A stretch of DNA of 64,000 nucleotides from Halopseudomonas pachastrellae (lineage in GTDB: Bacteria > Pseudomonadota > Gammaproteobacteria > Pseudomonadales > Pseudomonadaceae). A program made the position numbers and the translations under genes. The stretch is taken from contig NZ_FOUD01000022.1 in assembly GCF_900114765.1 (NCBI RefSeq), positions 1 to 64,000 on the forward strand. The letters are read 5' to 3'. Shown here one piece after another: positions 1 through 3,055 of this stretch. A model generated the notes under the pieces. It was not told the DNA's origin, made no database searches, and saw nothing but the letters and a program-made list of their open reading frames with translations. Position 1 is the stretch's first letter, and the number at the start of each line of letters is the position of its first letter.

Positions 1-20
1 CGTAGATACCGTCTTCCCGA

Positions 21-992
21 TCAGTGTGCAAGTGCTCTGATCGGGTCGAACGGCTGACCTGATTTCAGTACCCCGTAGATGAGGTGCAGCAGCTTACGCA
101 TGGCTGCGCAGACAACCAGCCGACCAGTTTTACCGCGTTCAGCTAGCCTCACTTTCATCGCTTTGATGACCGGGTTGTAGGTCATCGCCGACAGCGCTGG
201 CATGTATAGCGCTGCGCGCATTCGGCCTGACCCGGTGCGCGAGATGGTCGACTTGCCTCGGTATATCCCAGATTCCTGCAAACGCGGATTCAGACCACAG
301 AACGCTGCCAGCTGCCTTGCGCTGTCGAATCGCAGAGGGCTGCCCAGCTCCGCCAGCAGTGTGGCGGCAGTGCCATCACTGACACCATCAATGGTCTTCA
401 TTAACTGCTTCTGCTCGCGCAGGTCAGGGTCGTTGTCGATGTGATCGTTGATGGCCTTACTGATCAGGGCTATCTGGCCGTCCAGGTGCTCCAAGTGAAT
501 GCGGATAGAGGCTTGAGCGGATTCAGCGCTGACGTCCAGACGGTTGCGCTCCATCTGCGCCAACGCCTTCAGGTCGGCAAGCCGACGTACCAGGCCGCGT
601 AGCTGACGGATGCTCTCTGGCTCGGGCTCCCAGGGACGCATCTCTTCCAGATGGCGCTGTGCGTAGCGGGCGATCAGTTTGGCGTCGGTCTTGTCGGTTT
701 TAACCCGGCGCAGCTCGCTTTGCGCATATTTGGCGATGCGTGCAGGGTTGATGACACAGACCTGATAGCCCTGATGATGCAGATGCGTCGCCAGCGCTTC
801 GTGGTACACGCTGGTTGCCTCCATCAGCACCCAGCAATGTGGCTCGGCGTGCTTCTCTAACCATTGGTCAAGTTGCTTGAAGCCTTCGGGGGTGTTCGCC
901 ACCTTGGCCTTGGTGCGGTATTTGTCGCGCTCCAGCGGCTTAGCGATGTCGAAGGTGTGCTTGGCAATGTCGATTCCGATAGCGCAGGTCAT
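21..992 (-). mobile_element. IS110-family transposase (DEDD recombinase)
   Basis: This 323-residue protein is an IS110-family transposase, which mobilises its own insertion sequence. The N-terminal RuvC-like DEDD domain is visible: Asp8 in GIDIAKHTFD, Glu58 in LMEATSVYHE, and Asp100/Asp103 in VKTDKTDAKLIA. The C-terminal Transposase_20 region carries IDGVSDGTAATLLAELG and the serine-containing ISRTGSGRMRAALY. Length and domain order are normal and the frame is intact, so the enzyme looks active. The stop lies 20 bases from the window edge, so the right end of the element is barely inside or just outside. About 200 noncoding bases precede the start codon and almost nothing follows the stop, which fits the IS110 group rather than the IS1111 group. 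Confidence 0.93.
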
Positions 993-1200
993 GGGGCCTC
1001 CGGCTCTGTTGAAAGGTGATCGTCACCACACTCTGTTCTACCTTGCGAATACGTGCTCAGGCGCTCAGCACCGGCACCAGATACCGTTCGAACTGTCTGA
1101 GTGTGTTGGCAGGTGACGGCCCATCTACGAACCAAGCTCTTGAGGCTTCAGGGCCACACCGGCCTGTCACCTGCCGCCCGATGATCAGTCGGGGACCATG
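993..1200 (-). ncRNA. Left end of IS110 element, candidate bridge RNA
   Basis: This is the noncoding stretch upstream of the transposase. Established knowledge: in IS110-group elements this end encodes a bridge RNA whose loops pair with donor and target DNA. Seen here: a perfect 10-bp inverted repeat, GGCAGGTGAC (1108-1117) with GTCACCTGCC (1166-1175), and an inner GGCCC/GGGCC pairing that leaves a loop. Read in the transposase direction, that loop contains CGTAGAT, which is complementary to the transposase-sense strand of positions 1-7 at the opposite end of the element. The exact element boundary near 1190-1220 is not resolved, and the bridge RNA assignment is inference. Confidence 0.5.
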
Positions 1201-1228
1201 GTCACAGGGACCACAGTCAACATACAAG

Positions 1229-1248
1229 GGCCACGGCATGCCGTGGCC
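1229..1248 (-). terminator. 20-bp perfect palindrome after the PLD-like gene
   Basis: GGCCACGG-CATG-CCGTGGCC is a perfect 20-bp palindrome that starts 22 bases past the stop of the phospholipase D-like gene. On the minus strand it is followed by CTTGTATG, only a weak T tract. It is probably that gene's transcription terminator, lying between the gene and the insertion sequence. Confidence 0.5.
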
Positions 1249-1270
1249 GGATATCTGCGCCCGGCGGGCC

Positions 1271-2683
1271 TCAGAAGGTCGAGAGCCCGCTGGCTTCCAT
1301 AAAGCGGTACACCAGATAGCGCCAACGGCTGTGATCTGCAAAGTCTGCGTAGGGCAGGCTGTAGATCGCGCCGTTGGCGTTCTGCCATTCGCGCTCAAAG
1401 TCGCCTCGCTGCTGGCTGATCTGCGGACCATCGCTGCGGCTGACCAGTCGCACGCTGGTCTCCAGATTCAGGTCGTGCAGGTTGCGACGGGTGAAGTTGG
1501 CCGAGCCGGCAATCAGCTCGGCGCTGCCATCGGTGCGTTCCAGCCTGATCCACTTGCGATGACACTGTTCCCCCTCGGTCGCGCACCAGCGCACGGCAAT
1601 GCCTGCTTCGTGCAGATCCCAGGCTGCCTGCCGGTTGGGGATGCCGTTCTTTTCACGACCAAAGGCATCGCGGTTGGGGTCCAGGATCACGCGCAGTGTG
1701 GCGCCGCGCTGATGGGCCTGAATCAGCGCCTCGATAACGGGCCGTGACGACAGGTAGAACATCTCCAGATCCAACGCATCACCGGCTTGCGCCGAGTCGA
1801 TCAACTGCAGCAGCCCCTGCTCAATGGCGCCTTCGGTCAGCACCTGCAGCTGCGGTGGCTCGCTACCGGATACTGCCGGGGCGGCTGGCCAGTCGGCGGC
1901 AGGGGCGTAGCCGGACAGCAGCGCCACGGCGCGCTCGGTCTGCAGCAGATCGAGCGCTGCAGCGCCGCTGAACTGTACCGCGCTGTTGTCGTGGCGGCTG
2001 CTGGCGTCATGCGGGTTCATTGAGGTGACCAGGCCGGTCCACTCGCCGTTGTGGCCAACGATCAGGGTCTTGCGGTGATTGGCGCGGAAATTCAGCAGGT
2101 GCAGGTAAGTGCGCAGCGTGACCTTGCCCTCGCCGACCGGGTTGGGTAGCCAGCCGCCCCGGGTGCTGTTGCCAAGATAACTGCAGCACAGGGTCCAGAT
2201 GCCGGTCCAGGTGGGGTTGGAGGCGGGTAACTGGCTCAGGTCGGTCATCACCACGTCGACACCAGCGCCGCGCAGGGCCTCGAACTGCGCAGACTCCACG
2301 CCGCCGTAAAGGGTGTTGAACGGGTCGGTAATGAGTACCACCGGCATCTGCGGGTGACGTTGGCGGGCAGCAATCAGTGCGTCGGTCAGTTCGCTTGAGA
2401 GCGCGCGGTGGCTGTGCTCGCCGGCAAAATCATTGAACAGGAACATGTCCACAACGATCAGGTCGTTGGCGCCGCCGATCAGCGTCAGTACCCGGTCCAT
2501 GATCTGCTGCTGAACATGCTCCTGGCCCTGGCTGTCGCGCCAGGTCTGGTCAAACAGCAGTTCTACCTGTTCGGCGGGGCGCAGCGGGGTTGCAGTGGAG
2601 AGGTCTTCGGGCATCTGCTGGCAGCCAAGCAGGCTGGCAAGCAGCAATCCCGGCAGCAGCGAGCGAAAGCAGAGTGTGGGCAT
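1271..2683 (-). CDS. Phospholipase D-like lipoprotein with two HKD motifs
   Basis: A 470-residue exported protein of the phospholipase D superfamily, cardiolipin synthase-like. The N-terminus is a lipoprotein signal ending in LLGC, with the lipidated cysteine at residue 21, so it should be anchored on the periplasmic face of a membrane. Two catalytic modules are present: HRK at residues 203-205 followed by GEWTGLVTSMNP, and HRK at 375-377 followed by AELIAGSANFTRRN. The second HKD module is complete, with the usual GSxN. The frame could be extended upstream to a TTG at 2722, but the ATG at 2683 begins directly at the signal peptide and is preferred. The substrate, phospholipid headgroup transfer or hydrolysis, cannot be told from sequence. 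Confidence 0.85.
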   Translation of the reverse strand: MPTLCFRSLLPGLLLASLLGCQQMPEDLSTATPLRPAEQVELLFDQTWRDSQGQEHVQQQIMDRVLTLIGGANDLIVVDMFLFNDFAGEHSHRALSSELTDALIAARQRHPQMPVVLITDPFNTLYGGVESAQFEALRGAGVDVVMTDLSQLPASNPTWTGIWTLCCSYLGNSTRGGWLPNPVGEGKVTLRTYLHLLNFRANHRKTLIVGHNGEWTGLVTSMNPHDASSRHDNSAVQFSGAAALDLLQTERAVALLSGYAPAADWPAAPAVSGSEPPQLQVLTEGAIEQGLLQLIDSAQAGDALDLEMFYLSSRPVIEALIQAHQRGATLRVILDPNRDAFGREKNGIPNRQAAWDLHEAGIAVRWCATEGEQCHRKWIRLERTDGSAELIAGSANFTRRNLHDLNLETSVRLVSRSDGPQISQQRGDFEREWQNANGAIYSLPYADFADHSRWRYLVYRFMEASGLSTF

Positions 2684-2750
2684 GATCAAGGTCGGTTGCG
2701 GTGATAGCAGCAGACTGCCCAAGCCTGGCCGTTAATGCAAACCGCAAGGC

Positions 2751-3055
2751 GCCGGCTCGCTGCGCGCCAGGGAAGCACTGACTAATTCCATATGCCCTCT
2801 GGCGTTCAGGCTGGGCTGCAATCAAGGCGTGGTTTCGAAGGCATGTCGGGACCTGTCGAGAAATCACAACGCAGAGTGCGGCCCAGCCTGAACGCCCCGC
2901 AGGGCGAGCGCTCAAGCATGCATCTGCTGCGTTGCGCCGCTTGCCAATAGAACCACTATTGGCTGCACATCGCGCCTTGCATCTGCACGCTTGGGCGCTC
3001 GCAGAGAGCGTGTCGAATTGGTCAGTGCTTCCCTAAGGGCGCGCAGCGGGCCGGC
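2751..3055. repeat. MITE-like element, two long hairpins inside a ~38-bp inverted repeat
   Basis: The 389-base gap between two genes is filled by a nested inverted-repeat element. Outer arms are 2751-2788 and 3015-3055, matching at 17 of 18 positions in the GC-rich outer part and about 19 of 20 in the inner part GGGAAGCACTGAC(T/C)AATTC. Inside are two hairpins: a perfect 16-bp pair GGCGTTCAGGCTGGGC (2801-2816) with its complement at 2881-2896, and an imperfect ~43-bp pair (2908-2950 with 2956-2998) closing on CCAATAG/CTATTGG. No convincing coding frame lies inside. The structure fits a non-autonomous transposable element; the 266-bp core is 2769-3034. Confidence 0.75.

What the first reader, a model, noticed from the sequence alone, without database searches (positions are those of the whole stretch)
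1..1200. IS110 element with a structured, self-complementary left end: candidate bridge RNA
The transposase is intact and its 200-base upstream end folds (10-bp perfect stem at 1108-1117/1166-1175). Its loop, read in the transposase direction, carries CGTAGAT, which is complementary to the transposase-sense sequence at the other end of the element (1-7). That is what a donor-binding loop would look like. A second near match (AGATACCGT at both 4-12 and 1079-1087) adds a possible further guide.
Basis: partly seen in the sequence, partly recalled or inferred. Interest (0 to 1): 0.7.

Follow-up and report, generated by a model that had tools for sequence, protein, structure and literature searches.

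The report
IS621-like jumping gene with bridge RNA

Summary
Window 1-1228 carries an intact IS110-group recombinase (21-992, minus strand) and an upstream predicted bridge RNA (about 1024-1219, minus strand). Copies at different sites and an orthologous empty site fix the element at 4/6 to 1226/1228 (1223 bp), with a CT core at both ends, inserted beside a REP-like palindrome of Halopseudomonas. A covariance model built without any Halopseudomonas sequence finds the RNA at E = 2.8e-31 as the only hit in the window, and also finds IS621's bridge RNA at E = 6e-11. All four IS621-type guides are present in order: LTG 1150-1158, RTG 1125-1129, LDG 1079-1087, RDG 1042-1050. CGTAGAT is not a donor guide: its first five letters are the right TARGET guide and its last two the handshake guide, so the 7-nt match spans the inserted junction RE-CT-target. 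Across 19 distinct left target guides, guide and flank match far better than when swapped (6.63 versus 3.81 of 7; 0 of 50,000 shuffles). This is a new member of a known kind (IS621-type IS110). Transcription and activity are untested.

The parts
1..3 (-). First three bases of the right target (ACG in recombinase sense): flanking target DNA, not element
   Evidence: 8 right-end junctions in the genus have different flanks but all read CT-AC(G/A); the empty site reads CT-ACA
4..5 (-). CT core dinucleotide, right end
   Evidence: Empty versus occupied site; copies
6..12 (-). Left donor (ACGGTAT), terminal bases of the right end (RE)
   Evidence: Exact 9-nt match (with core) to LDG at 1079-1087
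16..45 (.). 9-bp inverted repeat (16-24/37-45) over the recombinase stop codon; function unknown
   Evidence: by eye imperfect in H. aestusnigri and not apparent in the other pseudomonad right ends printed
21..992 (-). IS110-group DEDD recombinase, 323 aa
1024..1219 (-). Predicted bridge RNA (5' end near 1219, 3' end near 1024; both ends inferred)
   Evidence: held-out covariance model hit 1036-1219, E 2.8e-31; donor-loop outer stem reaches 1024
1024..1107 (-). Donor-binding loop with outer stem 1099-1107/1025-1033
   Evidence: I20; own versus swapped arms -19.5 versus -15.5 kcal/mol over 24 elements, 0 of 20000 shuffles
1040..1050 (-). Right donor guide AUUCGCAAG (1042-1050) followed by handshake bases GU (1040-1041)
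   Evidence: aligned column by column with IS621 AUUUGCAAG-GU; complementary to LE CTTG.AT
1079..1087 (-). Left donor guide ACGGUAUCU
   Evidence: identical to element end plus core (4-12); 1 of 5000 shuffles
1108..1175 (-). Target-binding loop; outer stem 1108-1117/1166-1175, inner hairpin 1134-1148
   Evidence: own versus swapped stem arms over 24 elements -23.2 versus -17.6 kcal/mol, 0 of 20000
1123..1131 (-).
1150..1158 (-). Left target guide UGUGGCCCU
   Evidence: pairs with target CGTGGCC-CT (8 identical plus one U.G wobble); swap test
1177..1193 (-). 5' hairpin SL2 (CCCGACUGAUCAUCGGG)
   Evidence: CUGAUC in 19 of 19 sequences of A1 and 23 of 24 of A2; absent from IS621 and four more distant relatives
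1194..1218 (-). 5' hairpin SL1, sequence variable
1227..1228 (-). CT core dinucleotide, left end
1229..1248 (.). REP-like palindrome GGCCACGGCATGCCGTGGCC: left half of the target
   Evidence: perfect 10+10 palindrome; palindrome-CT-TGTAT at 9 left-end junctions in the genus

Best explanation
It is an IS110-group insertion sequence of the IS621 type, 1223 bp, in a Halopseudomonas genome. The upstream non-coding end encodes a bridge RNA. Two loops of that RNA pair with two DNAs: the first with the host target beside a REP-like palindrome (left guide with the bottom strand of CGTGGCC-CT, right guide with the top strand of CT-ACG), the second with the element's own joined ends (left guide with ACGGTAT-CT of RE, right guide with CT-TG.AT of LE). 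The recombinase then exchanges strands at the shared CT, so the element enters and leaves without a target duplication beyond CT. Shown here: ends, core, target, conserved RNA homology and fold, guide-flank covariation, catalytic residues. Inferred from IS621: transcription of the RNA from the circular form, binding by the recombinase, strand exchange, and current activity.
For: Ends: 8 right-end and 9 left-end junctions with different flanks. Empty site next to an aminotransferase gene in G000 versus the occupied site in G011; the best match of each empty-site flank in G011 abuts the matching end of the element (C6:357-439, E 1e-17; C38:10687-10777, E 8e-19). RNA: held-out model E 2.8e-31, sole hit in 64 kb; the same model finds IS621's own bridge RNA at E 6e-11 (L182 identified as IS621). 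Guides: all four line up with IS621. Left guide versus flank: 19 distinct guides, own 6.63/7 versus swapped 3.81, 0 of 50,000 shuffles reach it; 72 of 75 copies pair at 6 or 7 of 7 positions. Near-identical copies covary: the window and H. oceani RNAs differ at 4 of 184 positions, one of them in the left guide (UGUGGCC at flank CGTGGCC, UGUGCCC at CGTGCCC). Stem arms covary. Intact recombinase with the catalytic residues.
Against: No RNA or transposition data. Whole-RNA folding energy is not unusual (z -1.35). RNAalifold on the MAFFT alignments did not recover the target-loop outer stem, so stem conservation rests on guide-anchored constrained folds and arm-swap tests; one of 24 elements (L119) does not show the inner hairpin in that fold. 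A pair-count control was weak for this stem: 9 of 50 arm shuffles paired as well in the window element. One stem pair is broken in the H. aestusnigri copy. A left-guide match of this quality alone occurs in 251 of 5000 shuffles. Right-guide pairing past CT-AC is loose: many flanks mismatch at the third to fifth base. 3 of 75 left flanks fit poorly. Swap tests ignore relatedness among elements.
Confidence: 0.95

Rival explanations
1. One reading: the stem-closed loop at 1108-1175 is the donor-binding loop and CGTAGAT its donor guide, pairing with the element's own end.
For: CGTAGAT is exactly complementary to the recombinase-sense sequence at 1-7; its last two bases do pair with element bases 6-7 and are kept in 23 of the 24 aligned elements (AG in L151).
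Against: Bases 1-3 of the window are flanking target. The guide follows the flank, not the element: Pectobacterium TTTAGAT with flank CT-AA and unchanged RE ACGGTAT; G149 guide CCC with flank GGG in 6 of 7. IS621's homologous bases are RTG plus handshake guide. Another loop holds a 9-nt match to the element end.
Confidence: 0.03
2. The left-end structure is only a 5' untranslated regulator of the recombinase mRNA (as proposed for ISPpu9 sRNAs), and the complementarities are incidental.
For: The RNA lies just upstream of the recombinase start; the ISPpu9 paper (PMC8450116, passages seen) reports sRNA regulation of an IS110-family transposase.
Against: Guide-flank covariation over 19 distinct guides, homology to the experimentally proven IS621 bridge RNA and ordered guides for both DNAs. 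It could act in cis as well, but that would not replace the guide role.
Confidence: 0.02

Closest known systems
IS621 (E. coli, IS110 group; Durrant 2024 PMC11208160, Hiraizumi 2024 PMC11208158)
   Same: Recombinase domains and catalytic residues (133 of 315 aligned residues identical); RNA in the left end; order LTG-RTG-LDG-RDG; CT core; nearly the same donor ends (ACAGTAT-CT-TGTAT versus ACGGTAT-CT-TGTAT); handshake bases AU and GU; target beside a REP with CTAC on the right
   Different: Different palindrome and left guide; an additional, sequence-conserved 5' hairpin (SL2) and a longer left end; 42% protein identity
ISPpu10 and ISPa11 (Pseudomonas, IS110 family, REP-targeting; Tobes and Pareja 2006 PMC1525189; guides predicted in Durrant Extended Data Fig. 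10c, legend passage seen)
   Same: REP-targeting IS110-family elements of pseudomonads; 2-bp direct repeat stated for ISPpu9 and ISPpu10; predicted bridge RNAs
   Different: Sequences not held here, so identity to the window element was not measured
ISEc21 seekRNA (Siddiquee 2024, PMC11187229)
   Same: IS110 type with upstream NCR; RNA matches to both target strands, bottom-strand match first
   Different: Target is inside IS3-family transposase genes, not a REP

Membership tests
IS110 family (IS110 group) | DEDD RuvC-like N-terminal domain PF01548 and C-terminal PF02371 with conserved serine | tested here: met
IS110 family (IS110 group) | Long left (upstream) non-coding end, short right end, RNA in the left end | tested here: met
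   234 nt upstream (993-1226), 15 nt between stop codon and core downstream (6-20)
IS110 family (IS110 group) | No target duplication beyond a short core shared by both ends | tested here: met
   empty and occupied site differ by the element plus one CT, flank orthology checked; the two occupied halves lie on two contigs, so their link through the element is inferred
IS621-type bridge RNA | Homology and fold of the bridge RNA | tested here: met
   held-out model hits window (E 2.8e-31) and IS621 bridge RNA (E 6e-11)
IS621-type bridge RNA | LTG and RTG pair with bottom and top target strands around the core | tested here: met
   right guide loose beyond CT-AC
IS621-type bridge RNA | LDG and RDG pair with RE and LE around the core | tested here: met
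   LDG 9 of 9; RDG aligned with IS621 RDG. Little covariation available because element ends barely vary
IS621-type bridge RNA | RNA is transcribed, bound by the recombinase and required for recombination | not testable with these tools
   needs sRNA-seq and recombination assays
IS1111 group | RNA in a long right (downstream) end | tested here: not met
   long end is upstream; 15 nt downstream
IS1111 group | Subterminal inverted repeats of 7-17 bp | not tested
   no dedicated test was made
Rfam families | Match to a curated RNA family | tested here: not met
   window 1-3000: two chance-level hits only, both far under gathering score

The most novel reading that the evidence does not exclude
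This clade of IS621-like elements carries an extra, nearly invariant 5' hairpin (CCCGACUGAUCAUCGGG, 1177-1193) that IS621 lacks. It may be a separate functional module of the bridge RNA, for example a second recombinase contact or a control of RNA or recombinase expression.
Probability: 0.3. Interest if true: 0.45.

Novelty: new member of a known kind. Interest (0 to 1): 0.3.

Why it matters
It adds a well-bounded, probably intact IS621-type recombinase with all four guides, both ends and a well-supported genomic target. Natural copies that differ by one guide base and the matching target base are ready-made tests of target recognition. It also shows that a short complementarity to an element's end can come from the integration junction (target guide plus handshake guide) rather than from a donor guide, which matters when such RNAs are read by eye.

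Tried and rejected
Rfam search of 1-3000: nothing beyond chance. E. coli genomes, blastn distant, window 1-1249: no match, so IS621 was reached through a plasmid-collection protein search instead. RNAalifold on A1 and A2 did not recover the target-loop outer stem, probably because MAFFT misaligned the arms; replaced by guide-anchored constrained folds and arm-swap tests. The arm-shuffle pair count was a weak control (mean 14.9 pairs versus 11.1 in shuffles; in several elements many of the 50 shuffles did as well). The first guide parser gave only 8 rows, several wrong, and was dropped. The second misplaced the left guide in five Halopseudomonas rows (window, L009, L019, L040, L174); these were replaced by values read from the A2 alignment or, for L174, from the printed sequence; L175 was added by hand, and L009 (same left flank as the window) was dropped before the counts. 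Right- and left-end conservation counts are partly by construction, since ends were found with the motifs GGTATCT and CTT[AG]TAT; loci where a motif was not found (several because the contig stops) gave no row for that end. A1 and A2 hold representatives, not every element: L113, L126, L130, L167 and other near-duplicates, and L056, L057 and L090, were left out of the alignments; L114 is in A1 only. Junction promoter: TATCTT, created across the RE-CT-LE junction, lies 16-18 nt from a TTGC-type hexamer in the 17 pseudomonad elements scored, the window's included, but it follows from the conserved end sequence and conserved codons, so nothing rests on it. Orphan bridge RNAs: the model search of 37 genus genomes found 9 hits in 4 genomes; the six in the window's genome all lie near contig ends, two being the window copy and C23, the other four followed by a recombinase start, so no freestanding copy was seen.

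Full report
WHAT IS THERE. The window starts at a contig end (G000:C6) of a Halopseudomonas-like genome; the closest relatives of its recombinase found in named records are in Halopseudomonas oceani DSM 100277 (94%) and H. aestusnigri VGXO14 (93%). I take G011 and G002 to be these genomes because contig places and sequences coincide. On the minus strand, 21-992 encodes a 323-aa recombinase with both IS110 Pfam domains. Its only solved relatives at E 0.001 are ISCro4 (E 2e-65) and IS621 (E 2e-63). The five IS621 catalytic residues are all present, at 133 of 315 identical aligned residues.

ENDS AND TARGET. In recombinase sense, 8 distinct right-end junctions in the genus read ...ACGGTAT-CT-AC(G/A) and then diverge; 9 distinct left-end junctions read palindrome-CT-TGTAT. 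Several of these are cut by contig ends; in G001 and G027 only the left end was seen. Window bases 1229-1248 are a perfect palindrome whose 23-base context recurs in several genus genomes. I call it REP-like because it is repeated and palindromic; whether the sites are all extragenic was not surveyed. A pattern for this palindrome's end followed by CTAC has matches in 9 of 37 genus genomes, including the six in which I saw this element (G000, G001, G002, G011, G026, G027); the reversed control has none in any of the 37. Four other genomes (G012, G024, G030, G036) gave only short or distant matches and lack the motif.

EMPTY SITE. At an aminotransferase gene (PF00202) G000 has an uninterrupted palindrome-CT-ACAGCTC (C23 near 142,040). 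In G011 the same two flanks are split by the element, with CT at both ends (left 44 of 60, right 49 of 60 ungapped identities). Because such regions hold repeats, I checked each flank: the best match in G011 is the one abutting the element's left end (C6:357-439, 81%, E 1e-17, others much weaker) and right end (C38:10687-10777, 81%, E 8e-19). The G011 halves are on two contigs, so their link through the element is inferred. The element is therefore 4/6 to 1226/1228, 1223 bp.

THE RNA. Nineteen left-end sequences from other genera (no Halopseudomonas) gave a covariance model. It has one hit up to E 1 in the 64-kb window: 1036-1219 minus, 105.5 bits, E 2.8e-31. The same model finds IS621's left end (L182 510-673, E 6e-11), which was not in the model; L182 was identified as IS621 by its protein. 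Guide-anchored folds of 24 elements, IS621 included, show an outer stem around the loop in all 24 and the full plan (outer stem, left guide, inner hairpin, right guide) in 23; L119 folds otherwise inside the stem. Swapping 3' arms among elements weakens the target-loop stem from -23.2 to -17.6 kcal/mol on average (0 of 20,000 shuffles as good; 16 diverse elements: -22.8 versus -17.2, also 0 of 20,000) and the donor-loop stem from -19.5 to -15.5 (0 of 20,000). These tests ignore relatedness, so the counts are not strict probabilities.

THE GUIDES. Left target guide 1150-1158 UGUGGCCCU pairs with CGTGGCC-CT (one wobble). Over 19 distinct left guides and 35 distinct guide-flank pairs, own pairs score 6.63 of 7 versus 3.81 when swapped; 0 of 50,000 shuffles reach this. 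At copy level 61 of 75 flanks pair at all 7 positions and 72 of 75 at 6 or more. Right target guide 1125-1129 pairs with CT-ACG; 56 of 59 right flanks begin AC, and beyond that the match is loose. Left donor guide 1079-1087 is identical to the element end plus core (4-12). Right donor guide 1042-1050 AUUCGCAAG aligns with IS621 AUUUGCAAG.

In IS621 the two bases after the right target guide (A81, U82) are the handshake guide that pairs with donor positions 6-7 after strand exchange (PMC11208158, passages). In the window element CGUAG-AU has the same layout. Its seven bases therefore complement the product junction AT-CT-ACG: two element bases, the core, three target bases. Two natural changes decide between the readings. 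A Pectobacterium relative has UUUAG-AU, flanks CT-AA and an unchanged element end. The seven copies in G149 have guide CCCGUAG and flank ACGGG in 6 of 7, against 2 of 49 flanks of other elements that begin AC (Fisher p 6e-6).

CLOSE-RANGE COVARIATION. The window and H. oceani RNAs differ at 4 of 184 positions, and one of the four is the left-guide position at which their target sites differ (G/G versus C/C). A second IS110-group element in the same genome, seen only as end fragments, has almost the same ends but left guide GUCCACCCU and other hairpin-like targets.

MECHANISM. By homology with IS621: the recombinase excises a circle joined RE-CT-LE, the bridge RNA holds donor and target, and strands are exchanged at CT. 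None of these steps was tested here.

KNOWN OR NEW. REP-targeting IS110 elements of Pseudomonas are in print since 2006 (PMC1525189, passages), and Durrant et al. predicted guides for ISPpu10 and ISPa11 (legend passage). For Durrant I read sections 5, 6, 7, 12, 13 and passages; for Siddiquee the abstract and section 12; for Hiraizumi, Tobes and the ISPpu9 paper passages. My searches for Halopseudomonas or REP with IS110 or bridge RNA showed no paper on this element in the rows listed (20 of 220, 20 of 388, 10 of 19); the library is partial and ISfinder is not held. The difference from IS621 worth following is SL2: its CUGAUC is in 19 of 19 model sequences and 23 of 24 of A2, and absent from IS621 and from four more distant relatives (L056, L057, L090, L183), so it looks clade-specific.

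AGAINST. No expression data; ordinary folding energy for the whole RNA (z -1.35); alignment-based consensus folding missed the key stem; weak arm-shuffle control; loose right-guide matches; three poor left flanks; one broken stem pair in H. aestusnigri.

Noticed in passing
L045 / L020 (H. oceani, G011:C1): A copy whose left end is joined directly to the recombinase frame: the bridge RNA and the ATG are gone, apparently by deletion between two TGACC repeats, leaving an in-frame GTG; the frame holds a stop. A bridge-RNA-less relic still flanked by palindrome-CT and CT-ACG.
   Followed up: partly
window 1-1449 and C23:1-1449 (L009): C23:1-1449 is the exact reverse complement of window 1-1449, including 221 bp beyond the element. 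Either an assembly overlap or a real duplication, so the left flank of the C23-start copy is not counted as independent.
   Followed up: partly
C23 end (L010) and window start: In G023 and G008 the aminotransferase gene sits directly beside the PLD-like gene of window 1271-2722, so the C23 end (aminotransferase plus first 95 bp of the element) probably continues into the window; then the window's true right flank would be CT-ACGAAAT, a 7-nt fit to UUCGUAG.
   Followed up: partly
G000 C46, C44, C29, C24 (right ends) and C38, C27, C13, C9 (left ends): A second IS110-group element in the same genome, seen only as fragments at contig ends, with nearly the same donor ends and donor guides but a different left target guide and different hairpin-like targets. 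That these right and left ends belong together is inferred.
   Followed up: partly
window 1177-1193: Hairpin CCCGACUGAUCAUCGGG, nearly invariant across pseudomonad, Xanthomonas and Pectobacterium relatives, absent in IS621 and in four more distant relatives.
   Followed up: partly
window 16-24 and 37-45: Perfect 9-bp inverted repeat over the recombinase stop codon near the right end; by eye imperfect in H. aestusnigri and not apparent in the other pseudomonad right ends printed.
   Followed up: no
37 genus genomes: The palindrome-CTAC motif is present in only 9 of 37 genomes of the genus, so this repeat family is patchy; its spread was not traced.
   Followed up: no
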